This document shows positions 4,060-25,982 of a stretch of 64,000 nucleotides of DNA, piece by piece (within the stretch, counting starts at the first letter, position 1; each line of letters opens with the position of its first letter). This DNA is from Sulfurisphaera javensis (GTDB lineage Archaea; Thermoproteota; Thermoprotei_A; Sulfolobales; Sulfolobaceae). Both the position numbers and the translations under genes were made by a program. Under the pieces are notes generated by a model that did not search any database, was not told the origin of the DNA, and was given only the letters and a program-made list of their open reading frames with translations. The stretch lies in NCBI RefSeq assembly GCF_041154675.1, contig NZ_AP031322.1:1797812-1861811 (forward strand), read 5' to 3'.

Positions 4060-5262
4060 CTACACTATTTTACCAGGGTTAAATAAATCCTCTTTATCAT
4101 ACATTCTTTTATAAGTCTTTATCTTTTGAAGATGTTCTGGTCTTAATCTATTATTTATTGTAATACTATGTAAGTCGAATCTAAAAACTTGATAAGTTGA
4201 GAGTAAATTATTCAAATAATCTATCTTGCTCTTCTCTTCGTTTATAAAAAATGGATGAACTAACTTACCTTGTATGAATTCAAATTCCGTAACATACTCC
4301 TTGTAGTTTATTCTATCTAAAAATTTATATAACTCATCTATATAGACGTCAAAAGTAATGTAAAAAGTTGTGTTAGGGTTTTTATCATAAAAGGTTTTTA
4401 TTAAACCACCATAAAATGTATCTCTTCTATTCCAAAGCTCACTACCATTAATTCCATCAAAATCTAAAAAGTCTGGATAAGCAATTAATAAATTCCATTT
4501 AGAAAAGGGCATAACGTTAGTTAATTTTGATGCCTCTGGAGATCTTAAAGTCACATGATATACTGGCAATGCTTCATCGTATAAAGTTGAAACAAAATCT
4601 ATTGCCTTTTCAAGAGTATCAAAGAGAATTATTTTCGATTTTATTTTACCTTCATTGTAAGTTAGCATTTTTAATTTAGTAATTATTCCCGTAGTCCCTT
4701 CAGCATGAGCTGCTATTAAAACATCTCCACCCTTTAATCTAGTTAATTTTCCTTTAGGATTTACCATATCAACTTCTGTAGCTTGATACCAAACCCTACC
4801 AAATCTAAATGCACCAATACCTCCGCAACCGCCTTCATAATTTCCTCCAACAGTTACACCATCCTTATAAGTTGAAGGATAAACTCTTAACTTATTATAA
4901 ACATCAATAATTTTAACACCAGATCCTAAGGTAATTTCCTCACCTTCATCCTTTATTTCATAAAGTTTTTCAGTCTCAACTATTATCCCTTTCTTTAATG
5001 GAAGAACACCACCTATATTATTCTTTCCGGCACCCCTAGGAATTAAGGGAACATGTTCCTCAATAGCTATTTCAACTAGTTTCACGACTTCCTCTTCATT
5101 TTTAGGAAAGGCAATGCAAATAGGTTCTTCTTCCTTTATTTTTATTAATGGAGACATATAAGTTAAATCACTTGATTTCTCCTTAATTACCTCTGGTTCT
5201 GTTGAACAATATATTCCTTCTTTTCTAATTTTATCAATTACGTTAATTTTTCTCCCCTCCAA
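4060..5262 (-). CDS. FAD-linked oxidase (PCMH-type FAD domain, GlcD-like), paralogue 1
   Basis: The N-terminal half is a PCMH-type FAD-binding domain (IPRGAGKNN, then [13 protein letters not shown] and a second glycine-rich loop near [13 protein letters not shown]). The C-terminus ends with the family signature around [12 protein letters not shown]. At 400 residues it is near the size of glycolate-oxidase GlcD-type flavoproteins, which oxidise 2-hydroxy acids or similar substrates. It is one of three paralogues in this island. Its start overlaps the end of the nucleoside phosphorylase gene by 20 bases, so it is the third gene of a tight three-gene operon. The substrate cannot be told; context suggests an intermediate of nucleobase or amino-acid-like compound breakdown. 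Confidence 0.82.
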
Positions 5263-5893
5263 TTAACGTACTTAATATTATTGGAAAGTCTGCTTTATAA
5301 ATTTCCTCATAATTTATCCAATTTTTACCTTTATAATTAGCAATTATCAAAGCTGAAGCACTCTTTATTCCATAATTTGAAGATAATAGAAAAAGAGTTC
5401 CAGTCTCCATATCAATAATTTGATTTATATCTTCTTCAGCATAAAAATCATCACTTTGAAAAATCTCACCATAATAAACTTCTTTTCCATTATCTTTCAA
5501 AGCCTTATAAAGATTGTAAGCTAACTCTAGGTCGGGGAAAAGAGAATGTATAACATCACCTCTAACTCTTTGGTAAAGAGAGCTCGAGAAATATCTAGCA
5601 ACGCCAATAGGAATAAAATAACTTCCAACTTTGTATTTTTCATTTGGCGAACCACAAGTTCCATATCTTATTGCCTTCTTAACTCCTTGCCTAATTAACT
5701 CATCAAGGATTAAAGCTAATGAAGGACCTCCAACCCCATGAGTTGATATTACAACTTCATCTGAAATATATAAGTGATAACCCCTTTTAACTATCTTCTT
5801 TTTAACGCTTATAAAAGAGGAAAGAAGTTCAGCAATCTCTGGTTCTTCAACAAGAATAGCATTTTCCGGTAATTTTTCATCAACTACTAACAT
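5243..5893 (-). CDS. Nucleoside phosphorylase (PNP/UDP family)
   Basis: The protein belongs to the purine nucleoside/uridine phosphorylase superfamily, which splits nucleosides with phosphate into a free base and (deoxy)ribose-1-phosphate. The phosphate- and base-site segments [12 protein letters not shown] and RYGTCGS are present, as is an MExG-like ribose-binding segment (IDMETGTLF). At 216 residues it is shorter than typical members (about 235-260), and the C-terminal half is the reduced part. It overlaps both its upstream and downstream genes. In this setting it would release free bases for the deaminases and hydrolases of the island. Specificity for purine or pyrimidine cannot be decided. 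Confidence 0.75.
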
Positions 5894-6944
5894 TACTTAA
5901 CTCCCTCTCGTAAATTATAAATCCTCTCTTTTTAAGCTCTTCAAAGAAAACATCCTGGTTAACTACTTTTTCTGGTGGCAAAACTCCTTCACCCTTTACC
6001 TTCATTTGAACCGCTATACTAGCTGGAACACCAGCACCATATTGAGTACCATCAAAACCATCTTTTGGCGGAATTAACACTTCAATTTCCCTGACTTTCT
6101 TTTCATATTCAAAAATTACCTTTGCTGATTCCCACTCATCACCCTGACTTCCTAAAAATCCCTTTATTTTAAGCAATTCTTTTAAATAATCCCTCGATTT
6201 CACTCCCATGACCTCAACATTATCACCAAAAAGTTTTCCTAAAACTATAACTCCATCAAAGCCATCTCCTCCTTCCATCCAATCAACATATTTAACTCCA
6301 TCAAATGAATATGGAAATGTTGCTAATTCACTATGAATAGTTAAATATGTTTTTACTACTCCAACCGGTTTAGAAAACTCTATAATTTCACTTTTACTTA
6401 ACGGCTCATAATAGACGTAATTACCATTTTCCCAAACTGGAGCTTTCATTGTAATTTCATCCATTTGAGTATCAACACTCCAATTGAATTTAAACCCAGA
6501 AGACCTCCACCCATTCCTTATCTTTATTTTTTCTGGCAAACTGTACTTCTCGTACAAATACTTTGCTGATACATTAGTTATTCCAGGCTCAGCACCCATA
6601 CCTATAAGAGCCAATAAACCCTCTCTTTCAAAATCTTTATTCATCTCCAATTGCTTTCTAGTCATCCAAAACAATCCACCTAAATCTACATAGTTAACAC
6701 CAGCTTTTAATGATGCTTGCATTGCTTTCAAATTGAAATAGTATTGGGCTGTATTTATAACGTAATCACATTCCTTAATTTTACTAACAATATCTTCAAC
6801 ATTGTTTAAATCACCTTGAACATATTCAACGTCAAACTTTGGTTTCCTTAAATCAATAACTTTTACATTAACATTATTTTGTATTAAGTCAAAAACTGTA
6901 GCTGAACCCACTTGCCCAGAACCACCAATGACGCAAACTTTCAT
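5880..6944 (-). CDS. Saccharopine dehydrogenase-like NAD(P)-binding oxidoreductase
   Basis: The N-terminus is a clear Rossmann fold (VCVIGGSGQVGSATV) and the first 140 residues follow the saccharopine/homospermidine/carboxynorspermidine dehydrogenase superfamily (DYVINTAQYYFNLKAMQA, then GVNYVDLGG and GMGAEPGITN). These enzymes reduce or oxidise C-N bonds between an amino acid and an oxo acid. At 354 residues it is close to family length. It is the first gene of an operon with a nucleoside phosphorylase and an FAD-linked oxidase, overlapping the former by 14 bases. A role in lysine metabolism is not suggested by the neighbours. An imine/amine oxidoreductase acting on a nitrogen compound is the reasonable inference. 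Confidence 0.72.
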   Translation of the reverse strand: MKVCVIGGSGQVGSATVFDLIQNNVNVKVIDLRKPKFDVEYVQGDLNNVEDIVSKIKECDYVINTAQYYFNLKAMQASLKAGVNYVDLGGLFWMTRKQLEMNKDFEREGLLALIGMGAEPGITNVSAKYLYEKYSLPEKIKIRNGWRSSGFKFNWSVDTQMDEITMKAPVWENGNYVYYEPLSKSEIIEFSKPVGVVKTYLTIHSELATFPYSFDGVKYVDWMEGGDGFDGVIVLGKLFGDNVEVMGVKSRDYLKELLKIKGFLGSQGDEWESAKVIFEYEKKVREIEVLIPPKDGFDGTQYGAGVPASIAVQMKVKGEGVLPPEKVVNQDVFFEELKKRGFIIYERELSNVSS

Positions 6945-7141
6945 ATGATAAATTCTTTGGAAAATTTTATATTATTTTCTTAGCTCTAGTTTGTATAAAA
7001 TTTAACAAAGAGGGAAGACTTAGGTTGATACATCTAACCATCCGTGCTTTCCCAAGTAATATCCATCTTGTCCCTTAATAAAGTATTACCAAATTAATTT
7101 AAATTAATAAAAATATTATTGAACACACAAAAGACAAAAGA

Positions 7142-8389
7142 TTAAAAATCACTGTCTAGCAAATTCTCTATCTCGCCAGTAACATCTTTGTCATTTATCT
7201 TAAATTCTATCTCATTCTCTGCTATATTTTCACCAGAAACAACTAAAGCTGGAGGTAAAATATTCCTAATTGCTTCATATTCATTTTTAGCATTTAGAAC
7301 AACGAACTCAGCCTTTCTCCCGGGTTTTATACCATAATCATCTAACATAAGTATCTTTGCTGGGTTGTAAGTTACTAGTTTTAACATTCCCTCAATATCC
7401 TTACTTGTGAAGTGATCTACTAAGAAAGCTTCTTGTAATACTCTTAACATATTACCATCTCCTAGAGGATAAATTAGATCTCCTATGTTGTCTGTCCCTA
7501 AAGCAACATTTATCCCACTTTTTAACATATCCCTAATTCTAGCTATTCCTCTTCTTTTTGGATAATTATCATATCTTCCTTGAAGATGTGTACTAACCAC
7601 TGGATTTGATATTACATTAACTTTAGCTAATTTCATTAAATCTACAAGCTTTCCAAAATAATCAGATGGATAAGAGTGAGAGGCTGTCATATGACTAATA
7701 GTTGTCTTTTCTCCCCACTTTCTCTTTAACGCTTCATAAGTAACATATTCAACAAACCTTGAGTTAGGATCATCATTTTCATCTATATGACCATCAACCA
7801 TTTTATTATATTTTAAGGCTAAATCGAAGGCAATTTTAACTGACTCTATTCCTAACTCTACTGTAGGTTCTTGATTTGGAATTAATCCTACTACTTCAGC
7901 TCCTTCACTTAAGGCTTTTTCCATTTTTTCGATTGTGTCTTCAAAGTAAAATATTCCCGGAGATGGAAATGCGACAATTTGCAAATTTATTAACTCTAAC
8001 TTTTTCCTAGCTTCTAAAACATAAAATATTAATGGCATTATCTCGTGACTCCTAACATAAAGTACACCATTAACAAAAAATAGTTTCTCTAACTTTTTAA
8101 GCCTCTTCTCTATGTCATCAAATGTAATCTTAGGCGTTATTTCTTCCCTTGTTTTAATAACTCCTTCCCTTAATGTTCCACTTTCATTTACGCTTCCATA
8201 ATTTAAAGTTAAAGCATATCCTAAATGGGAATGAGGATTTACAAAAGGTGGGATTAACAATCTTTTCTTACCATAAAAAACGTAATCATCTTTCTTACCT
8301 TGACAATCTATACATCGAATAATTCCGTTTTCAACATATATATCATGAACTTTATTATCATCATAAAATCTAACTTCCTTAATCAACAT
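7142..8389 (-). CDS. Cytosine deaminase-like amidohydrolase, paralogue 1
   Basis: This 415-residue TIM-barrel amidohydrolase carries the CodA/TrzA-type metal site: HSH at strand 1 ([10 protein letters not shown]), HIDE at strand 5, [11 protein letters not shown], and the GTDN aspartate at strand 8. The HIDE glutamate, equivalent to the catalytic Glu217 of E. coli CodA, is present; the second Asp of the CodA GHDD motif is Asn here. Family members deaminate cytosine, isocytosine, creatinine or triazines, or hydrolyse related rings. Its ATG overlaps the end of paralogue 2 by 11 bases, and both follow an NCS1 permease, so it acts on an imported nucleobase-like compound in the cytoplasm. Confidence 0.82.
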
Positions 8390-9596
8390 TTACCTTCAAC
8401 TCCTCATTTATATTACTTTCATAAACTATTTTACCTTTACTTATAACCATTCTTCTAGGCTTTATTTCTCTTAAAGCATCTAAAGGATTTGTAGAGTTGT
8501 AAATAACTAGGTTTGCATCTGCTCCTTCATAAATACCATAATTTTTGATTAACTGCGCTTTTGCCCCATTATAAGTCATTAAGTCAAAAATTGTTTTTGC
8601 ATAAGAAGAGAAATACATATAAGAGGATATTGCTAAGATAAAACCTGATTGTAACATATCACCAACACCATAGGGATTTAAATGATTCTGTATATCATCA
8701 TGACCTAAAGCGACATTTACACCTTCTGAAATTAAATCCAAAACTCTAGCTATACCCCTTCTCTTAGGATAATTCTCGAAAGCCCCAGATTCTTCAAGTG
8801 CAGTTATTGGTGCAACAATTACATTTATTTTACTTTCCTTTAACCATTTTAAATACCTCCTAAAATAGTCTTCGTTGTATGAATGCATTGCAGTAACGTG
8901 AGATAAAGAAACTTTACCTTGCATTTTTCTTTTTAAAGTTTCTGAGATTATTACCTCACTAAACTTTGTTTCAGGATCATCAGCAAAATCTGCATGAAAG
9001 TCAAGTAACTTATCTTTTCCTTCAACACTATCAAAAATTTTCTTTATCATTCCTATTCCATCTTCTCTTGATGGTTGTAAATGTGGTTGTCCTCCTACAC
9101 CGTCAGCAATTTCTAGAGATTTATAAATATTTTCTTCAACGTTATCATCAAAATAAGAGTAACTTTGAACAAAACCAATTATTTGTATCTGAAGAATATC
9201 CTTAAATTCTTCCTTTAATCTTGCAATATATTTTAACCTATCTAAAGTGTCATCAATCATTATGTGAGTTCTTATGTAGAGAGTTCCGTGAGAAATGTAA
9301 TAATAAAGAGATTTTTTAGCTAGTTTATAAATCTCGTCTGCTGATAATTTAGATTTACACTCTAATAAAGCTTTAAGAGCTTCAATAAATTTTGGCGTTT
9401 CAGCTTCTTTACAAACATCTAAAAGAAAATTACTATCTAAGTGTGCATGAGAGTCAACTAATGCTGGGGTTACTAATTTTCCTTCCATATTTTCCCCTTC
9501 TGATGTTATTCCATCATAAACCTTTGCAATTTTACTTCCATTAATTTCTATACTTATAATTTTTCCTTCAACAGTCTTAAGGTTTTTCAAAATCAT
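8379..9596 (-). CDS. Cytosine deaminase-like amidohydrolase, paralogue 2 (catalytic Glu replaced)
   Basis: The protein has the CodA-type barrel: DSHAHLDSN at strand 1, a histidine in [14 protein letters not shown], the [14 protein letters not shown] segment and [18 protein letters not shown] at strand 8. The last segment is very close to E. coli CodA. However, the HxDE motif reads HADF, so the glutamate that shuttles protons in CodA is replaced by phenylalanine while the metal ligands remain. This suggests a substrate or chemistry different from simple cytosine deamination. It starts 4 bases after the NCS1 permease stop and overlaps paralogue 1, so transport and two hydrolases form one operon. 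Confidence 0.82.
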
Positions 9597-9600
9597 TATA

Positions 9601-11049
9601 TCACCAATATTTAAACAATTTCATAAACAATAAATATAACAATATCCCTAAAGGTAAACTTAACATTGGTCCTAATGAATATAAAGGAGAAGACACACTT
9701 AAGCCTAAAACGTACGAATATCCTGGCAGTATCGAAAGAGTAAAGGCTAGTATCGAAGCTAAGTTTATACCATGATAGTATTTATAACTCCCATTTCTAA
9801 CGTATAATGATTCAACGTCTATGGTAAATTTCCTGACAAACACATAATCAGCAACATTAATTCCTACTATTCCACCTAGAGCTATTCCATAAGTGTTTAA
9901 CCAATTTATCATAAACCCATATGCACTACCTAAAAAGCTCCATGCACCAATTAATAAACCTATTATTGTAGCTATTATAACCCCAGTAAACCAGTTTATT
10001 CTCTTAGGATAGAAATTGCTTATATCATAACCAGGAGGTAAAAGGTTTGCTAATGTATTTACTCCGAATGTTTCCATTAATATTGGTATTAAAATTATTA
10101 AAGAAAGATAAGATGGAGTAGTTAAGAGAGTTAATAGGACTGGGTCTATTACAGTGGCATGAACGTTTGAAATTGCCATAGTTGTACCTAAAACCCCTAA
10201 AAGCCCAGCAAAGGAATAAATAAATGGTAAAATTATTTGTCCTAACATTTGTGACCTTTGAGATTTAGCAAAACGAGTTAGATCTGGCATAGATATTGCC
10301 ATGGTTAACCAACTGGACATATTTCCAGCTAAGAAGGCTAATAACAGAAAGATATTGGAAGTTGATACTGTGAATTTTCCCAAATTTGATAAGTTCCATC
10401 CTGAAGTTTCTCCTTCATAAAGGAAAAGGATTAATAAACTAATAATTGATAAAGGTCCAACTATTTTACTCATTTTCCTTAACGGCTCTTGGCCTTTCAA
10501 TATGGGAGATATATATAATAGTAGAAGCTCTGAGATTATCACAATAGCAAATGTTATCCAAAATAGTTGAGGCACTGCTAAGGAAATTGTGAAAGAATTT
10601 GCTGAACCATTTGAAAGTAATGGTATAATTACTTTATTCAACTGACCAGAGAATTTCAAATATAGTCCTACTATTATCTCAGTTATTATAAAAACATTAA
10701 TTCCCCACCATCCAGCACCAATTATAGCCCTTACTGCTGAAGGAAAGAAAGCACCCCATATTCCCCATCTACTTCTCGTTATTTGCGGCTCAGCAATACC
10801 ATATTTTGCACCAGCATGAGATTGAATTAACATTGGAATTAGAGTAATTAAATTTCCTAAAAATACTAGAGAAACTGAAAGATACCATGGAATACCTAAA
10901 AATATTCCAAACCATGGATATTCCCAAGCTAAGACTCCTACGGTCATAGTTACCCATGCCATGGAATAATCTAATGCACTCCATTTCTTAATTTCTTTAG
11001 GAATAGGTAAAATCTCCTCATTACTTAATATATCGTCTTTACTTTTCAT
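9601..11049 (-). CDS. NCS1 family nucleobase/hydantoin/allantoin permease
   Basis: The 482-residue protein has about 12 hydrophobic segments and the N-terminal NCS1 pattern: a short polar start, a Trp-rich first helix region ([16 protein letters not shown]), then [13 protein letters not shown] followed by [12 protein letters not shown]1 transporters import cytosine, uracil, purines, hydantoins or allantoin with sodium or protons. It heads the operon with the two cytosine-deaminase-like hydrolases, which supports a cyclic amide or nucleobase cargo. A 266-base divergent region separates it from the FAD oxidase on the plus strand and probably holds both promoters. Confidence 0.86.
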
Positions 11050-11315
11050 AAATAGATCTCTCCTAAGGAATTTAAAAATTTTGCAAATGAATATTTTAAA
11101 TTACGTTTAATTGATAAATTTTTATATGAAGGAAGATGCTTATAAACATAGTTCAATATAATATTAATGTAAAGTTTTGCAAAACTAGTTTATAATGATA
11201 AAAATTCATGATAAAATGAAAAAGTATTTGTTATCTGTCACAACTTAACGTTTTTTGAACATTATACAATAGGGAATTGGGAAAAGCTTAAATTAAAATA
11301 CTTTATTAATTAATC
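11050..11315. promoter_or_regulatory. Divergent promoter region between NCS1 permease and FAD-linked oxidase operons
   Basis: This gene-free stretch separates two divergent operons of the catabolic island. On the plus strand GAAAAGCTTAAATT ends about 22 bases before the GTG start of the oxidase, consistent with a BRE/TATA pair and a leaderless transcript. On the minus strand an AT-rich TTTAAAATATT lies roughly 45 bases before the permease ATG. I see no clear palindromic operator. Confidence 0.4.
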
Positions 11316-12694: not shown

Positions 12695-13633
12695 ATGTAT
12701 AAGGAATGGTTACCCGTTGCTTTTTCTGATGAAATTAAAGAAATTTACGAAACAAATCTCTTAGGACATGAGATTTTAATAATTAAAAGAGATAACAAGC
12801 TTTACGCTTTAAGTAATAGATGTCCTCACAGATTGGCAAAACTTTCAAAGGGTAAAATAACTGATAATGAAATACAGTGTCCTTATCACGGCTGGAAATT
12901 TGACCTTGAAGGAAAATTGACTCTTATTCCCTCTTTAGGGAAAACGTTAAGTGTAAGGCTAAGAAAGTATTATGTTAAAGAGAAATATGGGATAGTCTGG
13001 GTTTCGATAGATGAGCCAGAGAAAGATTTACCAGAAATTAAAGAGTGGGAAAACTTTAGAAGAATAAAATGTGGTCCTTATTACATTAACGCTAATCCAT
13101 TTAGAGTATTGGAAAACTTACTTGATGTTTCTCATTTTCCTTACGTTCATGAGGGTTATTTAGGTGATCCAAAATATTCGATTATCCCAGAATATGAGGC
13201 CGAACTTACTGACGATTACGTAATAGCAAAAAACATAAAAGTTTACCAACCTAATCCAGATGGTAGTAATAGTGGAAAATATGAAACTTACACTTATATT
13301 ATTTACAGACCTTTATTTCTTTATTTCACAAAAAGCAATGAAAAAGGAGAGACTTTTTCTATGATATTCTCTATAAAGCCTGAGAGTAAAAGTAAAAGCA
13401 TTGTTTTTGCATGGATTTTTATGAATTATGGTTATGATGTTAAAGATGAAGTTATCAGAAAATTTGAGGATACAATTATAATGCAAGATAAAGAAGTACT
13501 AGAAACTCAACCTGACTTTTATTATCTAGATTTATCTAAAGAGATTCATGTGAAAGCTGATAAAGCTTCAATTCTTTATAGACATTATTTGAAGAGAAAA
13601 ATTGGAAAATTTGAGGAATTGGGGTTAATATAA
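12695..13633 (+). CDS. Rieske non-haem iron oxygenase (aromatic-ring or N/O-demethylase type)
   Basis: The Rieske [2Fe-2S] site is complete: C43-x-H45 (RCPHRLA) and C62-x2-H65 (QCPYHGWKF). The mononuclear iron site is also present, with D144, H147 and H152 in NLLDVSHFPYVHEG, and D265 in MQDKEVLE as the likely carboxylate ligand. At 312 residues it resembles short alpha-only oxygenases of the vanillate O-demethylase and methylxanthine N-demethylase group. No reductase gene is seen nearby, so electrons must come from a ferredoxin or reductase elsewhere. The stop overlaps the ATG of the following hydrolase, so the two probably act in sequence on the same compound. Confidence 0.86.
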   Translation: MYKEWLPVAFSDEIKEIYETNLLGHEILIIKRDNKLYALSNRCPHRLAKLSKGKITDNEIQCPYHGWKFDLEGKLTLIPSLGKTLSVRLRKYYVKEKYGIVWVSIDEPEKDLPEIKEWENFRRIKCGPYYINANPFRVLENLLDVSHFPYVHEGYLGDPKYSIIPEYEAELTDDYVIAKNIKVYQPNPDGSNSGKYETYTYIIYRPLFLYFTKSNEKGETFSMIFSIKPESKSKSIVFAWIFMNYGYDVKDEVIRKFEDTIIMQDKEVLETQPDFYYLDLSKEIHVKADKASILYRHYLKRKIGKFEELGLI

Positions 13634-16010: not shown

Positions 16011-16801
16011 AGACCATAACTTTGAAGCCTCTTTTTCAAGAACGGTCTTTTTATCCTTGCATTCATTACTTCATCCTCTGAAATATCTGCATAAAGTATT
16101 TCTTCACTCTTTCCAGCTTTACTAATTATTTCTCCCATAGGTGATATTATCATACTTTCTCCAAAGTATTCTTCTTTTTGTTGAGGATACTCCTTTCCAA
16201 TTCTATTTATCCCAACTACGTAGACAGTGTTAAATACCGCATGAGCCCTTAGTTCTAATTCCCATATCTCTTTAAATGCCGCTACTGAAGGAATGAAAAT
16301 TAACCAAGCACCTTTTACTACTTCACTTCTAACAGTTTCTGGGAAATGTCTATCGTGACATATTACAATACCAGTATTTACACCTTTCAAGTTAAATGTG
16401 GGAAAACCTAAATCACCAACTTTGAAGTAATAGTATTCATTAAACCATTCCTCTTGAGGTAAATGAGTTTTCCTATATTTACCTATAACCTTACCGTTGT
16501 CAATAACAAATGCAGTATTGTAAAAGAAGTTGTTGTCTCTCTCAAAAATAGGTACTATTAAACTAACTTCCCTTTCTTTGCTTATCTCTTTAAATCTCCT
16601 TATTGTCTCATCTTTCTCAGTTTCAGCCCATGCAAAGTATTTAGGATTTTGCTCAAAGGGAAAATATATTGTGTTACTGAGCTCATCTAAAGAAATTATT
16701 TCAGCTTTATTATCTATTGCTTTATGAACTAATTCTATTTGCCTTTCTATATTATCCTTTTTATCCCAACTCATATACGTCTGAATAATAGCTATACGCA
16801 T
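16007..16801 (-). CDS. Carbon-nitrogen hydrolase (nitrilase superfamily; N-carbamoyl amino acid or beta-ureidopropionase-like)
   Basis: The catalytic triad of the nitrilase superfamily is complete: E40 (ISLDELSN), K111 (YRKTHLP) and C148 (VICHDRHFPE). The 264-residue length fits single-domain members. Beta-ureidopropionases and N-carbamoyl-D-amino acid hydrolases of this family release ammonia and carbon dioxide from the product of dihydropyrimidinase, and two such hydrolases are encoded nearby, which makes this the best functional guess. Other amides are possible. It lies 31 bases downstream of an APC permease on the same strand. Confidence 0.82.
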   Translation of the reverse strand: MRIAIIQTYMSWDKKDNIERQIELVHKAIDNKAEIISLDELSNTIYFPFEQNPKYFAWAETEKDETIRRFKEISKEREVSLIVPIFERDNNFFYNTAFVIDNGKVIGKYRKTHLPQEEWFNEYYYFKVGDLGFPTFNLKGVNTGIVICHDRHFPETVRSEVVKGAWLIFIPSVAAFKEIWELELRAHAVFNTVYVVGINRIGKEYPQQKEEYFGESMIISPMGEIISKAGKSEEILYADISEDEVMNARIKRPFLKKRLQSYGL

Positions 16802-16832: not shown

Positions 16833-18428
16833 TTACTCAGGAGGAATCATCTTAAAGGCTAAGTTTATGTCTATACCTTGCTTAAGCCTATATTGTCTTG
16901 CCAAGAAGTAAAGTAAAAGTCCAACTGGTGGTATAACCCCAATTATTATGTAGTCAGTTAATAAGTTGCCAATTACCATAGATGCATAAAGACTATTTAT
17001 ACTAGCATACCATATTGAAAAGAATACTGAAATTACTAAGACTATTGAAGCTAAAGAACCATAAATTAAGAACTCCTTCTTGTCTTTATCACTTAATTCT
17101 TCACCAGAAATGCCCTTTATTCCAGCAACAACTGCTGAAATAGCAGCTAACAAGAACTGATAAAGGAAAAGTATTCCTATTAATACAATTGTTGAAACTA
17201 CCAAATAACCATTTATAGTAACATACTCAAAAATTAATGCTAATGCTAATACGAAGATTGAACTTACTAAAGGTGTCTTTAGTTTAGGATTTACATAAGC
17301 AAATTTTTCTGGAATCAATCTGTCAAATGCCATTGCTAATAACACTCTGCTTGGAATTGCTAACGATAAAGGTGTAGCAACAAATTGTAAACCTAAATTA
17401 AGTATTGCAACAAAGAATGCTAATATTGGTGAGCTTATTGCCAATATTCCAGCCCAGGCTATAAAACCGGAACCAGCTTGTAATGGTATATTTGATCCCC
17501 ATCCATTTAATGAAACGTAATTAAAGAATGGTATACCCATGGAATATTCAGTAGCAAATACTAATCCAAATATTATTGCTGAAGCAATAGCATAACCAGC
17601 TATCATACCAAGCTTTATAGACTTACCAGGCATTTTATATTCACCAGCAAAGTATGATGGGGCAAAGAACCAAATAAACATCCACATTATCATCAAAATC
17701 ATCCATATTAACGTTTGTAAAGGATTTACTATTGGTGAGTAGTATGCTAATCCAGAAGAGTAAAGTGAAGCATAAGTTGGTCCTTTATACATTGCTGAAA
17801 GAGAATTAAAAGCTAATTCAAATGCTTTAGGTCCTTGAGCAAGTAATGCTAGAATTAGTAATCCTCCAATTACTTGCATAGTAGCAATCCCAAAAAGGAA
17901 GTTTGCCATATACCTTGGTGGAAAAATACTAATTATCCACATTGCAATTAAGTCTATGAAAGCTGAAATTTCAAAGACAGTTGGATTTACTAGCATTGCA
18001 GTTCCCAAATTTAATAAAGCTGAATTGTGGAATGCTAAACCCAAAAGCTGAAATGCAGGAGCAATACCAGCTGAAATCTCTATTTGAGAAAGTATTGCCG
18101 CTAATAATGGTGTTGAGAATACATTTGCAACAGCTTGTATTCCGCCTAATGCTGGATGTAATATTCTAGTAATATAAATGTATTCTCCAGAAGATCTTGG
18201 AATATGTTCAGCTAATTTTAGATAAGTTAAGAAGATTGGTAATGCAACTATTGCCGCTAAAACTATTCCTAAGCTCCAATCAGCACCGGGTAGAGCTGGA
18301 GAATAAACCATTGTATAATATACTGAAATTGGTACTATCATTGCTAATACTTTTGCAAATGCATGTCTACTACTCATTTGCCTTACAAGCCCAGAGGATT
18401 CTCTAATGAATATTTTCTTTTCACTCAT
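16833..18428 (-). CDS. APC superfamily amino acid/amine permease, paralogue 1
   Basis: The 531-residue protein has about 12 membrane segments. The cytoplasmic N-terminus carries FIRESSGLVRQ, a sequence shared with the other two permeases of this window. The first helix region and the SGEYIYITRI segment match the amino acid/polyamine/organocation transporters. It precedes the nitrilase-family hydrolase by 31 bases, so it probably brings in the nitrogen compound that the hydrolase acts on. The exact cargo cannot be inferred. Confidence 0.8.
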   Translation of the reverse strand: MSEKKIFIRESSGLVRQMSSRHAFAKVLAMIVPISVYYTMVYSPALPGADWSLGIVLAAIVALPIFLTYLKLAEHIPRSSGEYIYITRILHPALGGIQAVANVFSTPLLAAILSQIEISAGIAPAFQLLGLAFHNSALLNLGTAMLVNPTVFEISAFIDLIAMWIISIFPPRYMANFLFGIATMQVIGGLLILALLAQGPKAFELAFNSLSAMYKGPTYASLYSSGLAYYSPIVNPLQTLIWMILMIMWMFIWFFAPSYFAGEYKMPGKSIKLGMIAGYAIASAIIFGLVFATEYSMGIPFFNYVSLNGWGSNIPLQAGSGFIAWAGILAISSPILAFFVAILNLGLQFVATPLSLAIPSRVLLAMAFDRLIPEKFAYVNPKLKTPLVSSIFVLALALIFEYVTINGYLVVSTIVLIGILFLYQFLLAAISAVVAGIKGISGEELSDKDKKEFLIYGSLASIVLVISVFFSIWYASINSLYASMVIGNLLTDYIIIGVIPPVGLLLYFLARQYRLKQGIDINLAFKMIPPE

Positions 18429-18487: not shown

Positions 18488-18952
18488 TTATGAATCATAA
18501 GTTTTTATTCCTAGCGAAGCAAGAAATGGCTCTATGTGATCATTAATTACGTGACTCATCAATTCTGATTGTGTTCTTCTTCCCAATAATCCCTTTTTAA
18601 TTGTAATATTATCTATAAACACTATACTCCTTTCTTGTATTAAAATTTCAAGATCTCCTTGAACAGTGTTATCAAAAGTCTCTATATGATAAAGAATGCC
18701 AGAAAATTTTGGAGTAACGGTCATTGTTCCCCTATTAAATTCAGCAGTTTCATGATCTAAGACTATAAAAATTTGAAATTTTGATAGGTCAGGCTCTCTA
18801 GCTTGAGTATATACTGTATAAGACCTCGTAGATCTGTCATAAACTTTACTTATTAAAATATGTCCAGTTATTCCAGTGAAGATGAATGGATTAAAAATAT
18901 ACTGCTTTAAATCTACTTGTTTAGTTAAAGTTAATTGATAGCTGTTAACCAT
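18488..18952 (-). CDS. Uncharacterised SRPBCC/START-like protein (DUF3211-type)
   Basis: The 154-residue protein alternates beta-strand-like segments and ends in a long amphipathic helix (residues about 128-150), the layout of the SRPBCC ligand-binding fold. Its composition reminds me of the Sulfolobales DUF3211 family, but I cannot verify that by search. No catalytic motif is visible. It starts one base after the metallophosphoesterase stop and is therefore in that operon. A role as a binding protein for a small hydrophobic or cyclic ligand is only a guess. Confidence 0.5.
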   Translation of the reverse strand: MVNSYQLTLTKQVDLKQYIFNPFIFTGITGHILISKVYDRSTRSYTVYTQAREPDLSKFQIFIVLDHETAEFNRGTMTVTPKFSGILYHIETFDNTVQGDLEILIQERSIVFIDNITIKKGLLGRRTQSELMSHVINDHIEPFLASLGIKTYDS

Positions 18953-18953: not shown

Positions 18954-19904
18954 TTAACCCTTCCCTAAAAGAATACTCTTAACCTCAAACTTCTTTATAT
19001 AAGCTTTACCAAAACCTTTTGCTTCTTTTTTGATAATTACATAAGCATAATTTAATATGCCATCTTTATAGTTACTTCCCGGATTAATAACTTTAGTATT
19101 TCCTATTTTATCACTTGCTGGAGATTCATGAATATGACCATGTAGACCTAATACTGGTTGGTATTTCTCTATTAGTTCTCTAACCGTTTGAGAGCCAACA
19201 TGAATATTTTCGTCTTTTATTCTAGCTATATCAAGTTTAGTATTATAAGGAGGAGCATGAAAGTTAAATATTGTATACTCTGGTCTTTCAAGCTTCTTTA
19301 TTTTATCCTCTAGTTTGTTATATAACGTAGATTCTGGTAATTCCCTATAGGTATTCCATGGAGTCGGATTTACATAACCAGAACTCACGAGAATAAGATC
19401 GCCTATTTCTATGTATTCATTTTCGGCAACCTTTATCCCGTGACTTTCTAAATAATTATCAACCTCTAAGGGATCATCATTACCAGTATTCCAAATAGTA
19501 ATAAATTTAGCGTCTTTGGTTTTCTCTTCAAATATTTTAACCCATGAGTCAATCTGACCTTGAATAAATTCAAGAATTTTTTCCTTCCTAAAATGAGGAT
19601 TAGAATTAAATTCCTCTAACTCATCTTTTGAATCAAAAAATAAGGGAGCTAAACCAGATGTCTTATATATTTTTTCTATTTCATCAAGAGAGACCTCTTC
19701 TTCACCTTGATAGATAGAATTGCCTTTCTTAAGATATAAAGCGAAATCTTTAGATACTAAATCCCCTCCTAAAATGAGATAATGAACACCAAACATTTTA
19801 CTTGCATTTAAAGCTTTTCTAAATACTACCTCTGAACCATGAATGTCCGAAACGAACAACAATTTTATTTCAATTCCCATGACATTAGCATCTATGATTT
19901 TCAT
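18954..19904 (-). CDS. Calcineurin-like metallophosphoesterase
   Basis: The five metal-binding motifs of the family are seen in order: SDIHG (Asp and His), GGDLVS (Asp), a GNDD segment (Asn), the histidine in FNFHAPPY and GHIHES (His pair). These bind two metal ions and hydrolyse phosphomono- or diesters. The 316-residue size allows an insertion of about 60 residues between the second and third motifs. It is cotranscribed with the small SRPBCC-like protein. Substrate is unknown; a nucleotide or cyclic nucleotide would fit the island but is inference. Confidence 0.8.
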   Translation of the reverse strand: MKIIDANVMGIEIKLLFVSDIHGSEVVFRKALNASKMFGVHYLILGGDLVSKDFALYLKKGNSIYQGEEEVSLDEIEKIYKTSGLAPLFFDSKDELEEFNSNPHFRKEKILEFIQGQIDSWVKIFEEKTKDAKFITIWNTGNDDPLEVDNYLESHGIKVAENEYIEIGDLILVSSGYVNPTPWNTYRELPESTLYNKLEDKIKKLERPEYTIFNFHAPPYNTKLDIARIKDENIHVGSQTVRELIEKYQPVLGLHGHIHESPASDKIGNTKVINPGSNYKDGILNYAYVIIKKEAKGFGKAYIKKFEVKSILLGKG

Positions 19905-21038: not shown

Positions 21039-21039
21039 C

Positions 21040-22950
21040 TTAATCTCTCCTCAATGGTATTTCATAGACTGGTATAAAATCAGATATTGCATTTGCTATT
21101 GATGCATAAGCCCCGGAAATGCTGTTTTCCCCAATTCCTCTAAACCCACCTGGAGTATTAGATGGTGTGTGAAGCAACTCAACCTCAATTTTTGGTACCT
21201 CTTTTGCTGTTGGAATTAAGTAGTTATAAGGATCATTAACGTCTTCATAAAGTACACCTCCAAGTGCCTGAATTATTCCTCCTATTATTTGGCCTCTAAC
21301 TTTTTCTTCATCTCCAGCAACCCCAATATCTACAATCGTATAATTCTCTATAACTTTGAAGTTTACTCCATCATAACCAACCACGGTAACTTGACCACTC
21401 ACTGCACCTACAGAGTCCTCTGGCTCATAGCACTTTATTGAATAAATTTCCTTATCTTTAATTTCCCATGGGAACTCATTAAGCAATTGTAATACTCTGT
21501 TTATTCCTCCTAAACTCTCAATCTTTTCTTTTAACTCTTTTACAGCTAAAAGCGTAGCATTCCCAGCAGTTAAGACACTTCTGCTTGCCCAACTTCCAAA
21601 CCCATTTACATCTTGAGAACCAGTATAAACTACTACCTTGTCATAATTTAGTTCTTTAGCTACAATCTTTTTTAAGACATCAGATATCCCTTGTCCCATA
21701 TCAACAGTAGTGGTCTTTACTTCAATTATCCCACTTTTGTTTAATCTTACTGAAACGCACTCATAACCTCCAACAAAAGATTTTTCTTCTCCGATTAAGA
21801 TTTTTGATGTTGGAGAGGCATAATGAACGTATAAGGAAACACCTATTCCTATCTTGTATTTCTCTTTGAATTCTTCATACTTCTTCCTCACTTTTTCAAT
21901 CACTTTCTTTACATTACCTATATCTTCAATGTTTGCTAAATTCTTTTCTCTTATATCTATTGGAGAAAACTTTAATTTTCTAGCTACTTCATCCATTATC
22001 CTTTCTATTACAAAGAAAGCTTCTGGCCTACCAAAACCTCTAAAAGCACCTTGTGGTGGATTATTACTCGCGATAACTTTAATATTAGTTCTTATTTTAA
22101 TATCATATATGTTCCTTAGGTTTATTAAAGTTACGTAAAGTGGAGAAATGCCAGTCCATGGTAATGGGTAAGCTCCCATGTCATATGTTATATCATCTAT
22201 TATCCCAGTGATCTTTCCGTTATTATTGAAATATACTTTAACATCATGCTCTTGGCCTCTTCCTTGAGATGTCATTATATGTTCAGATTTTCTTTCGATC
22301 CATTTTAAATTCTCTCCAGTAACATAAGAAAGAGCTATAACAGCAAGTTCCTCGCTTACTATATCCTGTTTTGCCCCAAATCCACCACCAACCCTAGGAA
22401 CTCGTACCTCAACTTTATCTTCTGATACATCTAACATGTCTGCAACAATTTTTTTAACTACAGTAGGTGCTTGAGTTGAAATTCTTATTACTATCTTCCC
22501 ATCTTCATGAGTAACTATTACTGCTCTTCCTTCTAAGGGAGCCGGAGATTGCCTATTAAACTTTAATTTTAATGAGAGTGAATCTTCTCCTATCTCATAT
22601 TCTCCTTTAGAAAAAGAAAAAATAACGTTATCAGGCTCATATATTGGCCCTTCTAAGTCTTCATATTCTACCTCAACTTCATCTTTTTTATCTTCAGCAT
22701 CATATTCATCTTCACCTATAACCATTCCTATTGGTTGCCCTACATAAAGTGCTTTATCTTTTGCTAATAATGGTATTTCAATATCCTTTAGTTTTCCTTC
22801 ACTTTCAAAAATCTTTGGTACTCTAAAATCTATATCTTCCCATGTAAATGCCTTACCACTAATCTTAAACCTAGCGTACGGTTTGGTAGATCGTATAAAT
22901 GAAACTACTTTATATTTTCCTTTGATATCGTCTACATAGTGATAAAACAT
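21040..22950 (-). CDS. Xanthine dehydrogenase/CO dehydrogenase family molybdenum-binding large subunit
   Basis: The protein has the aldehyde oxidase/xanthine dehydrogenase large-subunit domains: an N-terminal a/b hammerhead (residues about 1-110, with KALYVGQPIGMVI) and the molybdopterin-binding part. In the latter I see GGGFGAKQDI, GAFRGFGRPEAF, DMGQGISDV, a GSWASRS segment and the C-terminal catalytic glutamate in GFRGIGENSISGA. These enzymes hydroxylate carbon next to ring nitrogen. At 636 residues it is shorter than most large subunits (about 750). No FAD (CoxM) or [2Fe-2S] (CoxS) subunit gene lies nearby, so it must borrow partners. It is followed by a CodA-like hydrolase one base downstream. 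Confidence 0.84.
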   Translation of the reverse strand: MFYHYVDDIKGKYKVVSFIRSTKPYARFKISGKAFTWEDIDFRVPKIFESEGKLKDIEIPLLAKDKALYVGQPIGMVIGEDEYDAEDKKDEVEVEYEDLEGPIYEPDNVIFSFSKGEYEIGEDSLSLKLKFNRQSPAPLEGRAVIVTHEDGKIVIRISTQAPTVVKKIVADMLDVSEDKVEVRVPRVGGGFGAKQDIVSEELAVIALSYVTGENLKWIERKSEHIMTSQGRGQEHDVKVYFNNNGKITGIIDDITYDMGAYPLPWTGISPLYVTLINLRNIYDIKIRTNIKVIASNNPPQGAFRGFGRPEAFFVIERIMDEVARKLKFSPIDIREKNLANIEDIGNVKKVIEKVRKKYEEFKEKYKIGIGVSLYVHYASPTSKILIGEEKSFVGGYECVSVRLNKSGIIEVKTTTVDMGQGISDVLKKIVAKELNYDKVVVYTGSQDVNGFGSWASRSVLTAGNATLLAVKELKEKIESLGGINRVLQLLNEFPWEIKDKEIYSIKCYEPEDSVGAVSGQVTVVGYDGVNFKVIENYTIVDIGVAGDEEKVRGQIIGGIIQALGGVLYEDVNDPYNYLIPTAKEVPKIEVELLHTPSNTPGGFRGIGENSISGAYASIANAISDFIPVYEIPLRRD

Positions 22951-23045
22951 TAAATAAATAAAGGAGGCGAATTTTTATATCTTTTTATTAACTTAATTAA
23001 ATAACTTAAGAGGAATGAAAGAAGGAAAAAATTTACTTACTTAAG

Positions 23046-24563
23046 TTAATCTGGAGGTATTTCTTTATAAATCATGTTTATATCTATTCCTTTACCTAAA
23101 TTAATTTGCCTAGCTACTATGTATATTATTGCTCCAACAACAAAACTACCTATTACAAACCCTAAAGTTATTGGATTAGGCACCCCATTTGGTTGAGCAA
23201 AACTAAACACTGGATTTGTTACAGATTCATATGTCAAAAATACAAAGTAGCCAGCTTCAAATATACCAGCACCTATTAATGGAATTATTTTGTTCTTTAT
23301 TCCATAAATTACTCCCGCTACACTTACTGTAAAGAAATAAACCATTCCAATTACTATTGCTCCATAAAGTGCTAAGGCACCGTTAAATGATATTACTGGT
23401 AAGGCTAAAAATGCTAAGGTTAAAATTAAGTCAAATAAATGAGTATAAACTGGAGATCCATATCTATTTAATCTAGTAAATATTTCTGGAAATACTCTGT
23501 CAAAAGCCATTGCAAATATGTATCTAGAAAAGACAATAACACCATAAGCTAAAACTGCAAACTCCCAAGTCATTAACCCAATTCCTATAATCCACTGTAA
23601 AACTGGATTACTTGTTAATCCAATTGCAACAGTCCAGAAAGTGTAAACGAAAGAGCTTGCAGAGTTTGTAAACATGTAAGTTGTGAAAGTATAACCTCCT
23701 GCCAAATACATTAAACCAAATCCTAAAGTCACCAAAATTCCAGTAGCTAATAATGGAATAATAACTCCGTATTGAACATATTTAACTTTCTTTGCCTCAG
23801 ATGCAATAGCTGGAGTTGCTTGCATCCACGGATAAGTAAATATTGCAAGTAACGGGAGTATGCCAGTTAATGAAACTATTAAGTTAGGCGGAGGAACTGT
23901 AGATGCATAATTAGATGGTGGAACTATTCCTTCTCTTTCTAGGAAAGGAATTATAGCAGTATGAAAATCTGGGATATTAATTCCAATGACTATCATAGCT
24001 ATTATTGTTGTAATAAGAGAGACTAATGTACTTACAGTTACTAAAGTATAACCCCATTTAGCTCTAAATATGTTAAAAGCTATTATTACTCCAAAAAGTA
24101 CTGCTCCTAATATGTAGGAAGGAATTGGGGCTGAAAGAGATGATGACAAAGATACTAATGAGGATATTCCATCCATAGTTCCTATAGTTCCTACAACTGT
24201 TCCAACAGCTGAAGAAAAGAAATATGCTACTAATGCAAAAAATGCAGTAGATTCTATCATTAAAGCAAAAGCCATCGTTACTCCTACACTCCCATGCAAA
24301 ATTCTAGATAACCAAATATAATCACCCCCTGTCTTTGGAATCTTACCAGCTAGAACCATGTAAATATATGCTTGTGGCAAAGTTAGTATTAATCCTATTA
24401 ATGAAGCTATCCATATTACTCCACCAGGTGGAATATAAGGTGATATTGAATTAAATAATGCTACTCCAGCTGACATATTGCCTAAATTTAGCATTATAGA
24501 GTCTAATGCACTTACATTTTTAACTAACCCAGAACTTTCTCTAACGAATAAACTTTTACTCAT
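23046..24563 (-). CDS. APC superfamily permease, paralogue 2
   Basis: About 12 membrane helices and the N-terminus MSKSLFVRESSGLVK match the other APC permeases here. A start 12 bases further upstream is open, but I prefer the ATG that begins MSKSLF because both paralogues begin this way and because TTTAAAT on the minus strand lies about 25 bases before it. The protein has the early GGDYIWLSRI segment typical of the family. It diverges from a dihydropyrimidinase gene across a 105-base promoter region, so cargo and hydrolase substrate may be linked. Confidence 0.8.
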   Translation of the reverse strand: MSKSLFVRESSGLVKNVSALDSIMLNLGNMSAGVALFNSISPYIPPGGVIWIASLIGLILTLPQAYIYMVLAGKIPKTGGDYIWLSRILHGSVGVTMAFALMIESTAFFALVAYFFSSAVGTVVGTIGTMDGISSLVSLSSSLSAPIPSYILGAVLFGVIIAFNIFRAKWGYTLVTVSTLVSLITTIIAMIVIGINIPDFHTAIIPFLEREGIVPPSNYASTVPPPNLIVSLTGILPLLAIFTYPWMQATPAIASEAKKVKYVQYGVIIPLLATGILVTLGFGLMYLAGGYTFTTYMFTNSASSFVYTFWTVAIGLTSNPVLQWIIGIGLMTWEFAVLAYGVIVFSRYIFAMAFDRVFPEIFTRLNRYGSPVYTHLFDLILTLAFLALPVISFNGALALYGAIVIGMVYFFTVSVAGVIYGIKNKIIPLIGAGIFEAGYFVFLTYESVTNPVFSFAQPNGVPNPITLGFVIGSFVVGAIIYIVARQINLGKGIDINMIYKEIPPD

Positions 24564-24570
24564 AAAGTAA

Positions 24571-24641
24571 AGCATTGTATAAGAATTTAAATATATTTTG
24601 TTATATTATACTAATTCTATAACTTAGAAATTCACAATGCT
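24571..24641. promoter_or_regulatory. Divergent promoter with an inverted AGCATTGT/ACAATGCT pair
   Basis: AGCATTGT at 24571-24578 and ACAATGCT at 24634-24641 are inverted copies flanking the space between the permease and dihydropyrimidinase genes. The right copy overlaps the TATA region (CTTATATTT) of the plus-strand gene and the left copy sits just upstream of the permease ATG. The arrangement could be an operator that controls both genes, or chance in AT-rich DNA. Confidence 0.35.
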
Positions 24642-24668
24642 TATATTTCTCCAGTACTACATTTTATT

Positions 24669-25982
24669 ATGATTTTTAAAAACGCAAGAGTCATAACTCC
24701 TCAAGGAATTATTGAAACAGACTTTGAAGTAGAAGAAGGAAAAATTGTTAAAATAAAGAAAGAAATAACTGGGGATGGAAAAGATTTATCCGGTTATTAT
24801 ATTCTACCTAGCGTCATAGATGGACATACGCATTTTAATTCTAGGTATTTAGGAAGTAAAGAAATTATTCCTACAGCTGATGATTATAAAAGTGGTAGTG
24901 AAGTTGCATTAGCTGGTGGGGTTACTACAGTTATTAATTTTATTGATCCATTAAATAGAGGAGTTATTGAAGCTGTTAAAGAGGAGATCGAAAAAGCTAA
25001 GACTACTGCTGGCTTTGATTTTTCTTTTCATTTAATAGTAAAGAGAAAGGAGCAAATTAATTACCTTGATGAAGTGTTCAAGCTTGGAGTAAAAAGTGTA
25101 AAGATGTTTATGGCTTATAAAGGAAGTATGCAAGCTGATGATGAAACTATTTACTTGACTATGAGAAAAGTTAAAGAACTTGGTGGCACTGTAGCTATTC
25201 ACGCAGAAAATGGTGACGTTATTGAAGCTTTACAAGAAGAATATAAAGATAAAAAAGAGGCAATTTATCATGCAATAACTAGGCCTATTGAAGTTGAAGA
25301 AGAAGCTGTAAATAGAGCATCTATGCTAGCCTATTTAACTGGAGTCAAAGCTTATATAGTTCACATTTCTTCACCAACCTCACTTGATATAATAAATTTC
25401 TGGAGAAAGAAAGGGGCAAACATTTATGGAGAAACTTGTCCTCATTACTTAATATTTGATGAAAGTTACTATGAAAGACCGGACGGGTATAGATTTATAA
25501 TGTCACCTCCATTGAGGAAGAAAGAGATGAGAGAGGAATTAGTAAGGAAAATCAACATGGTTGATACTTTAGGCAGTGATTATTCCGGTTTCATGTCAGT
25601 GTATAAGGATAAGGCTTTAAGTTACATTGAAGTTCCTAATGGTGTTTCATCTACAGAATTTCTTGTACCAACGATTATCAGCTTTATGTTTCAAGGCTTA
25701 ATAACTCCAGAAAATGTTGCTAAAATAACATCTGAAAATCAAATAAAACTATATAATATAAAAGAAAAGGGTTTTAAAGTTGGTAGCGATGCTGATTTTG
25801 CTGTAATAAAAAGGGAGGAATGGCAAGTTAAGGATTGGCATGGAAAAATGGATTATTCTATCTATGAGGGAGTAAAGTTTAATGCAAGAGTTGTACAAAC
25901 TTACTTAAGGGGCGAATTAGTGTTTGATGAAGATTATAAGGGAAGTAAAGGATATATGATAAAGAGAGAAGAAATTACATAA
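24669..25982 (+). CDS. Dihydropyrimidinase/hydantoinase, paralogue 2
   Basis: The 437-residue protein is a canonical cyclic amidohydrolase. It has GHTHFN at strand 1, the carboxylatable lysine in VKMFMAYKGSMQ, histidines in AIHAENGD and VHISSPTS, the GETCPHYL segment and the strand-8 aspartate in GSDYSGF. This pattern is closer to dihydropyrimidinases and hydantoinases than paralogue 1 is. It would open 5,6-dihydrouracil or a hydantoin to an N-carbamoyl amino acid, the expected substrate of the nitrilase-family amidase at 16007. A TATA-like CTTATATTT about 25 bases before the ATG indicates a leaderless transcript. Confidence 0.86.
   Translation: MIFKNARVITPQGIIETDFEVEEGKIVKIKKEITGDGKDLSGYYILPSVIDGHTHFNSRYLGSKEIIPTADDYKSGSEVALAGGVTTVINFIDPLNRGVIEAVKEEIEKAKTTAGFDFSFHLIVKRKEQINYLDEVFKLGVKSVKMFMAYKGSMQADDETIYLTMRKVKELGGTVAIHAENGDVIEALQEEYKDKKEAIYHAITRPIEVEEEAVNRASMLAYLTGVKAYIVHISSPTSLDIINFWRKKGANIYGETCPHYLIFDESYYERPDGYRFIMSPPLRKKEMREELVRKINMVDTLGSDYSGFMSVYKDKALSYIEVPNGVSSTEFLVPTIISFMFQGLITPENVAKITSENQIKLYNIKEKGFKVGSDADFAVIKREEWQVKDWHGKMDYSIYEGVKFNARVVQTYLRGELVFDEDYKGSKGYMIKREEIT

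What the first reader, a model, noticed from the sequence alone, without database searches (positions are those of the whole stretch)
4060..25982. A 22-kb nitrogen-heterocycle breakdown island with an unfamiliar enzyme mixture
Seen: NCS1 and two APC permeases, three CodA-like hydrolases, two dihydropyrimidinase-like enzymes, a nitrilase-family amidase, a nucleoside phosphorylase, a Rieske oxygenase, three PCMH-type FAD oxidases, a Mo-hydroxylase large subunit and a saccharopine-dehydrogenase-like enzyme, in at least six tightly packed operons. Known: dihydropyrimidinase plus beta-ureidopropionase is the lower half of reductive pyrimidine breakdown, while Mo-hydroxylases and Rieske oxygenases act oxidatively. 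No dihydropyrimidine dehydrogenase, urease, barbiturase or uricase gene is seen. Inference: a hybrid or new route for purines, methylated bases, hydantoins or similar rings, feeding the nitrogen assimilation operon next door.
Basis: partly seen in the sequence, partly recalled or inferred. Interest (0 to 1): 0.66.

Follow-up and report, generated by a model that had tools for sequence, protein, structure and literature searches.

The report
Archaeal ring-nitrogen breakdown module, probably for purines
A block of genes shared by a few heat- and acid-loving archaea looks like an uncharacterised pathway that takes nitrogen-rich ring compounds (most likely purines) apart for their nitrogen; it matters because these genomes lack the usual enzymes for urate breakdown.

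Summary
The genes are there as described. A six-enzyme core inside the 22 kb (Mo-hydroxylase large subunit, hydantoinase HYD2, CodA2, CodA3, flavoenzyme FAD3, nitrilase) recurs as a set in four Sulfolobaceae genera plus a MAG, and is decaying together in one sister species. PNP, SDH-like, FAD1, FAD2 and NCS1 are not part of that core. The 'missing' dihydropyrimidine dehydrogenase and urease lie 18-40 kb left of the window edge, with a curated-cutoff dihydropyrimidinase. So the island is not a crippled pyrimidine route but a second, distinct set of paralogs. CodA2 and CodA3 have invariantly lost the catalytic Glu of cytosine deaminase. Best explanation: a fused-pyrimidine (purine-type) catabolic module in which Mo-hydroxylase/Rieske and FAD3 oxidise the ring, two amidohydrolases open it, and nitrilase/CodA2 strip ureido groups. 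Support: Rieske relatives in a guanine deaminase/xanthine permease/purine-riboswitch locus; FAD3's nearest structure is a folate-catabolism flavin oxygenase; no uricase, HIU hydrolase or OHCU decarboxylase. The substrate is inferred, not shown.

The parts
4060..5262 (-). FAD1: FAD_binding_4 (GlcD-like) flavoprotein; not core
   Evidence: Pfam PF01565 68 bits; paralogs at 39-46% elsewhere in relatives, often in pairs
5243..5893 (-). nucleoside phosphorylase-like protein; not core
   Evidence: PF01048; among the regions read, only one homolog (59%), outside the cluster
5880..6944 (-). saccharopine-dehydrogenase-like protein; not core
   Evidence: PF16653/PF03435; in relatives sits next to APC44, GSAM47 and agmatinase-like genes
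7142..8389 (-). CodA1: cytosine-deaminase-like hydrolase keeping metal ligands and Glu217 but with Gln156, Asp314 and Trp319 changed
8379..9596 (-). CodA2 (core): CodA-like hydrolase, Glu217 replaced by Phe/Tyr
   Evidence: adjacent to FAD3 in five other genomes and a MAG
9601..11049 (-). NCS1 nucleobase/allantoin-type permease
   Evidence: PF02133 222 bits, TIGR00800 192 bits
11316..12560 (+). FAD2: FAD_binding_4 flavoprotein; usually linked to DUF1177 elsewhere, remnant in the S. tokodaii-sized genome
12695..13633 (+). Rieske non-haem iron oxygenase; nearest structures SxtDIOX/SxtT and NdmA
   Evidence: relative in purine-riboswitch operon
13633..14874 (+). HYD1: divergent hydantoinase-like amidohydrolase with metal ligands kept
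   Evidence: TIGR02033 212 bits, below cut-off; alignment
14892..16010 (+). FAD3 (core): FAD_binding_4 flavoenzyme, nearest structure 6v42 (flavin oxygenase of folate catabolism)
   Evidence: high-scoring homologs only in eight cluster-bearing genomes of 398 in the phylum
16007..16801 (-). nitrilase-superfamily carbamoyl amidase (core)
   Evidence: PF00795, AguB-like 194 bits; 66-87% identity in eight other genomes
16833..18428 (-). APC1 permease
   Evidence: PF13520; 58-84% orthologs near the core or in its genomes
18488..18952 (-). 154-aa protein of unknown family
   Evidence: no family; conserved with next gene in the genus
18954..19904 (-). calcineurin-like metallophosphoesterase
   Evidence: PF00149
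19980..21038 (-). CodA3 (core): CodA-like hydrolase, Glu217 replaced by Gln, Gln156 by Glu
21040..22950 (-). MoL (core): short Mo-hydroxylase large subunit without adjacent [2Fe-2S] or FAD subunits; nearest structure quinoline 2-oxidoreductase
23046..24575 (-). APC2 permease
   Evidence: PF13520
24669..25982 (+). HYD2 (core): hydantoinase/dihydropyrimidinase-like cyclic amidohydrolase
   Evidence: TIGR02033 305 bits, below cut-off 393; metal ligands kept

Best explanation
The functional unit is a six-enzyme catabolic module (MoL, HYD2, CodA3, FAD3, CodA2, nitrilase), in the window's genome joined by a Rieske oxygenase, a second hydantoinase, CodA1 and permeases. It dismantles a fused-pyrimidine ring, most likely a purine of the xanthine/urate type, for nitrogen. 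Proposed order: permease uptake; MoL (and the Rieske enzyme) hydroxylates ring carbons; FAD3, an O2-using flavoenzyme, breaks ring aromaticity in place of uricase; HYD2/HYD1 and CodA3 hydrolyse the two rings as cyclic ureides or amides; the nitrilase and CodA2 remove ureido or formyl groups; ammonia, plus urea or formamide, goes to the nearby urease and (in other genera) formamidase and glutamine-synthetase-like genes. Shown: gene content, co-occurrence, joint decay, active-site changes, neighbouring urease and pyrimidine loci. Inferred: the substrate, the order of steps and every catalytic activity.
For: Core linkage: among 147 genomes of the order, FAD3, CodA3 and HYD2 orthologs fall in exactly the same eight intact genomes, and the nitrilase in those eight plus one. 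The order MoL-HYD2-CodA3 or MoL-HYD2-CodA3-FAD3-CodA2 recurs in other genera and in Sulfolobus sp. UBA167. In G119 CodA3, MoL, HYD2, HYD1, FAD3 and nitrilase are broken or gone, with transposase-like ORFs, while Rieske and both permeases stay intact. Purine type: a Rieske relative (34.5%) in Niallia sits behind an Rfam purine riboswitch (86.6 bits) and a xanthine-type permease, divergent from a guanine deaminase above cut-off. Klebsiella HpxDE, with a Rieske enzyme, oxidises hypoxanthine/xanthine (PMC7373994). FAD3's best solved match by sequence (3.6e-18) and fold is a folate-catabolism flavin oxygenase. MoL's nearest structures hydroxylate N-heteroarenes. Hydantoinase and nitrilase sit side by side in G125 and around PreA elsewhere. 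By enzyme class the core parallels the E. coli/C. difficile urate set XdhD, YgfK, SsnA, HyuA, UacY, YgeY (PMC12507026). Urease is near the cluster in three genera and formamidase in two.
Against: No enzyme has a demonstrated substrate. The Rieske gene is not in the core of genus g6, where only a distant (about 40%) homolog lies elsewhere. CodA2 is missing from two genomes that keep the rest. MoL lacks adjacent electron-transfer subunits; the orphan CoxS/CoxM pair found has orthologs in all Sulfolobaceae searched, so it is not a specific partner. The Niallia relation is only 34% identity, and other Rieske relatives at similar distance lie in loci with no purine signal. The FAD3 model is poor (pLDDT 57). 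No diaminopropionate lyase, allantoicase or ureidoglycolate enzyme was identified beside the core.
Confidence: 0.48

Rival explanations
1. The same module attacks pteridines (folate or archaeal pterin cofactors) rather than purines: MoL hydroxylates the pterin, FAD3 oxygenates it as in bacterial folate catabolism, and the amidohydrolases open the pyrimidine part.
For: FAD3's nearest structure is the folate-catabolism flavin oxygenase 6v42.
Against: The Rieske context points to purines; similarity to 6v42 covers mainly the FAD domain, and the model is weak.
Confidence: 0.15
2. It is a hydantoin/ureide and substituted-base scavenging island with several short routes, not one pathway: HYD2 plus nitrilase convert hydantoins to amino acids, and the CodA-like enzymes handle separate bases or amides.
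For: Hydantoinase-nitrilase pairing without the oxidative genes in G125; several permeases; modules such as FAD2-DUF1177 occur independently; HYD1 sits away from the core in g6 and g2.
Against: Strict co-inheritance and joint decay of oxidative and hydrolytic core genes; MoL-HYD2-CodA3-FAD3-CodA2 on one strand in UBA167.
Confidence: 0.22
3. A xanthinase-like hydrolytic route: xanthine opened by HYD2, the ureido group removed by the nitrilase, then imidazole steps by CodA2/CodA3 to formiminoglycine, glycine and formamide.
For: Enzyme classes fit, and formamidase adjoins the core in g6, g7 and UBA167. Pathway outline from PMC3519856 and PMC12507026.
Confidence: 0.1
4. The reader's hybrid pyrimidine route, in which the island's hydantoinases and nitrilase serve the lower half of reductive uracil breakdown.
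For: Family resemblance.
Against: A separate PreA-dihydropyrimidinase-nitrilase locus lies 17-21 kb outside the window, with PreA and the dihydropyrimidinase above curated cut-offs.
Confidence: 0.05

Closest known systems
Reductive urate pathway of E. coli / C. difficile (XdhD, YgfK or UacX, SsnA, HyuA, YgeW or UacY, YgeY, YgeX; PMC12507026)
   Same: Same classes in one cluster: Mo-hydroxylase, flavoenzyme, two ring-opening amidohydrolases (one hydantoinase), two ureido-removing hydrolases.
   Different: The flavoenzyme is PCMH-type, not Pyr_redox or DHO_dh; CodA-like instead of SsnA; nitrilase instead of a carbamoyltransferase or M20 peptidase; aerobic hosts (general knowledge); no lyase seen.
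hpx purine system of Klebsiella (HpxD Rieske; PMC7373994)
   Same: Rieske oxygenase proposed for purine hydroxylation.
   Different: No reductase HpxE beside it; no HIU hydrolase or OHCU decarboxylase; Mo-hydroxylase also present.
Reductive pyrimidine (Pyd) pathway
   Same: Hydantoinase/dihydropyrimidinase and nitrilase-type carbamoyl amidase.
   Different: The genuine Pyd set is a separate paralogous locus outside the window; the island has no PreA.
Xanthinase purine pathway of Clostridia and Bacilli
   Same: Would use an amidohydrolase, a carbamoylase and a formamide/formate end.
   Different: Flavin and Rieske steps not needed there; sequences not compared.

Membership tests
Reductive pyrimidine (Pyd) pathway | dihydropyrimidine dehydrogenase (PreA/PydA) in the island | tested here: not met
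   None in 4060-25982; PreA lies outside at G000:C1:1778653-1779702, 401.7 bits
Reductive pyrimidine (Pyd) pathway | dihydropyrimidinase above curated cut-off | tested here: not met
   HYD1 212 and HYD2 305 bits against cut-off 393; outside paralog 475.8
Oxidative urate pathway | uricase PF01014 | tested here: not met
   0 of 12 genomes
Oxidative urate pathway | HIU hydrolase PF00576 and OHCU decarboxylase PF09349 | tested here: not met
   0 of 10 genomes each
Oxidative urate pathway | xanthine dehydrogenase activity of MoL | not testable with these tools
   MoL scores below all XDH equivalog cut-offs; activity needs an assay
Reductive urate pathway | Mo-hydroxylase, hydantoinase and further amidohydrolases in one cluster | tested here: met
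Reductive urate pathway | YgfK- or UacX-type reductase and SsnA in the cluster | tested here: not met
   Flavoenzyme is FAD_binding_4 and the amidohydrolases are CodA-like
Cytosine deaminase (CodA) | metal ligands H61, H63, H214, D313 and His246 | tested here: met
   all three paralogs in all orthologs
Cytosine deaminase (CodA) | catalytic Glu217 | tested here: not met
   Kept in CodA1; Phe/Tyr in CodA2, Gln in CodA3, invariant in orthologs
Cyclic amidohydrolase (hydantoinase) superfamily | HxH, Lys, two His and Asp metal ligands | tested here: met
   HYD1 and HYD2 alignments; ligand positions assigned from memory of known hydantoinases
Nitrilase superfamily | Glu-Lys-Cys triad | tested here: met
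   DELS, KYRKTH and ICHDRHFPE motifs conserved
Xanthine dehydrogenase/CO dehydrogenase family holoenzyme | cognate [2Fe-2S] and FAD subunits encoded with the large subunit | tested here: not met
   None adjacent; an orphan CoxS/CoxM pair is elsewhere but has orthologs throughout the family
HpxD-type purine Rieske oxygenases | orthology to HpxD | tested here: inconclusive
   Not compared with HpxD itself; a 34.5% relative is in a purine operon

The most novel reading that the evidence does not exclude
A fourth purine-degradation pathway, confined to Sulfolobaceae archaea, in which a PCMH-type flavoenzyme replaces uricase (or the YgfK-type reductase) for ring dearomatisation, and CodA-fold enzymes that lost the deaminase glutamate open the rings.
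Probability: 0.3. Interest if true: 0.75.

Novelty: new variant of a known kind. Interest (0 to 1): 0.5.

Why it matters
A search of the open-access library found no paper on purine breakdown in Sulfolobales, and these genomes lack the standard urate enzymes. A six-gene module limited to cluster-bearing genomes gives a short, testable gene list, and it pairs a Mo-hydroxylase, a flavoenzyme and deaminase-derived hydrolases in a combination that I do not know from any described purine or pyrimidine route.

Tried and rejected
A genome-contig scan with HYD1 alone found nothing; with the FAD3 alignment it found only Sulfolobus sp. UBA167. Plasmid searches with CodA3, FAD3 and MoL gave only distant generic relatives. 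A shared operator motif was sought in upstream regions; a perfect 14-bp palindrome (AGTTTTGCAAAACT) occurs once, between NCS1 and FAD2, and is not repeated at the other operons. An orphan CoxS/CoxM pair as MoL's dedicated partner was rejected because its CoxM has orthologs in all Sulfolobaceae searched. The FAD3 AlphaFold model is poor (pLDDT 57), so the fold search is only supporting.
Full report
What is there. The 22 kb holds 18 ORFs in at least eight same-strand runs with overlapping or nearly touching genes. The window is part of a complete 2,569,661-base chromosome. Two relatives match by exact size the published chromosomes of Sulfurisphaera tokodaii 7 (G078, 2,694,756) and Sulfolobus acidocaldarius (G042, 2,225,959), as I recall those sizes. 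The window's genome is in the same genus as G078.

Outside the window. Reading 58 kb to the left changes the picture. A urease operon (UreAB, C, E, F, G, H; 1757379-1761982), cyanase, an AsnC-type regulator, a dihydropyrimidinase, PreA and a second nitrilase lie between about 17 and 40 kb outside the window edge, among more permeases and several aminotransferases. PreA, dihydropyrimidinase, UreC and cyanase exceed curated cut-offs. So 'no dihydropyrimidine dehydrogenase, no urease' is an artefact of where the window ends. The canonical reductive pyrimidine pathway is most likely the outside set. HYD1, HYD2 and the island nitrilase are diverged paralogs: HYD2 is about 40% identical to the outside dihydropyrimidinase and 32% to HYD1, and the two nitrilases are 44% identical.

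The conserved unit. Protein searches of 147 genomes of the order give the same eight intact genomes for FAD3 (50-75% identity), CodA3 (50-78%) and HYD2 (57-83%); the nitrilase (66-87%) is in those eight plus G125. There are about 4.5e12 ways to choose eight of 147, but the genomes are related, so this is not a P-value. Gene order was read in these genomes and one MAG. MoL, HYD2 and CodA3 are consecutive in g7, g2, g6 and UBA167, and CodA2 is next to FAD3 in all of these. UBA167 has MoL-HYD2-CodA3-FAD3-CodA2 on one strand, divergent from nitrilase-formamidase-GS-like-amidohydrolase_2. Across 398 genomes of the phylum, high-scoring FAD3 homologs occur only in these eight. In G119, a sister species, CodA3 is frameshifted, MoL is in three pieces with a transposase-like ORF between, HYD2 carries about a dozen stops, HYD1 and nitrilase are stubs and FAD3 is gone, while Rieske, APC1, APC2 and the phosphoesterase are intact. 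Joint loss supports a joint function for the core. FAD2 is a remnant in G078 and G119. CodA1 and CodA2 are absent from G078 and G131, so CodA2 is core in six of eight.

What the enzymes tell. CodA1, CodA2 and CodA3 keep the metal ligands and His246 of E. coli cytosine deaminase. Glu217 is kept only in CodA1, and is Phe/Tyr in every CodA2 and Gln in every CodA3. CodA2 and CodA3 are therefore probably hydrolases other than deaminases (inference). MoL keeps the C-terminal GxGEN motif expected to carry the catalytic Glu, and its nearest structures are quinoline 2-oxidoreductase and 6-hydroxypseudooxynicotine dehydrogenase. It has no adjacent small or medium subunit. The genome has three Fer2_2 proteins: two with their own large subunit, and one in an orphan CoxS/CoxM pair next to CoxG- and MocA-like genes. 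The CoxM of that pair has orthologs in every Sulfolobaceae genome searched, so the pair may serve MoL but is not specific to it. FAD3's best solved relative is 6v42, by sequence (3.6e-18, next best 1e-10) and by fold; its title is a flavin oxygenase involved in folate catabolism. The model is poor, so the sequence match carries the weight. The Rieske enzyme's best structures are SxtDIOX/SxtT and the methylxanthine demethylases NdmA and NdmB.

Substrate clue. In Niallia taxi a 34.5% relative of the Rieske enzyme follows a purine riboswitch (RF00167, 86.6 bits) and a xanthine-type permease, and is divergent from a guanine deaminase above the curated cut-off. In Leptolyngbya a 34.8% relative follows a BMP-family ABC transporter. 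Other relatives at the same distance have no such context. The literature gives a Rieske-type hypoxanthine/xanthine oxidation in Klebsiella (HpxDE; PMC7373994). Uricase, HIU hydrolase and OHCU decarboxylase are absent from the carriers.

Explanation. The core has the same classes of enzyme as the bacterial reductive urate pathway (PMC12507026): Mo-hydroxylase, flavoenzyme, two ring-opening amidohydrolases, and hydrolases for ureido groups. The individual families differ, and the organisms are aerobes (general knowledge). I therefore propose a purine-type ring-dismantling module with FAD3 as the dearomatising step (0.48). That the core is a co-inherited catabolic unit for nitrogen rings is much firmer (about 0.85) than the choice of ring.

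Novelty. Every enzyme belongs to a known superfamily, but I know of no described pathway with this set. I rate it a new variant of a known kind, interest 0.5, with a novel case (a fourth purine pathway) at 0.3.

Noticed in passing
window 3423-3500, minus strand: The nitrate-reductase-like ORF called at 1557-3422 lacks its [4Fe-4S] motif, but ICPYCGVGC is encoded in frame just upstream, between an in-frame TGA and the TTG, with no ATG/GTG/TTG before it. The real start is probably a non-standard codon such as ATT or ATA.
   Followed up: partly
L147:7180-8528 (G000:C1:1432179-1433527): Orphan CoxS/CoxM pair beside CoxG- and MocA-like genes with no large subunit; the CoxM has orthologs in all Sulfolobaceae searched.
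   Followed up: partly
G000:C1:1754287-1797811, left of the window: Some 40 kb of further nitrogen-scavenging genes: urease, cyanase, reductive pyrimidine set, maleate-isomerase-like, polysaccharide-deacetylase (PuuE-like), agmatinase-like, and many APC/MFS/NCS1 permeases.
   Followed up: partly
L105 (G000:C1:2514292-2517560) and L104 (G042:C1:1677929-1680063): FAD2-like flavoproteins are paired with DUF1177 in several Sulfolobaceae regions read, with an M20 peptidase in two of them: a separate conserved module of unknown function.
   Followed up: no
L110:6358-8975: Purine riboswitch, xanthine-type permease and Rieske oxygenase in one Niallia operon, divergent from guanine deaminase: a candidate bacterial Rieske purine oxidation system.
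   Followed up: partly
window 11173-11186: Perfect 14-bp palindrome AGTTTTGCAAAACT in the NCS1/FAD2 divergent intergenic region; no other exact copy in the window or fetched loci.
   Followed up: yes
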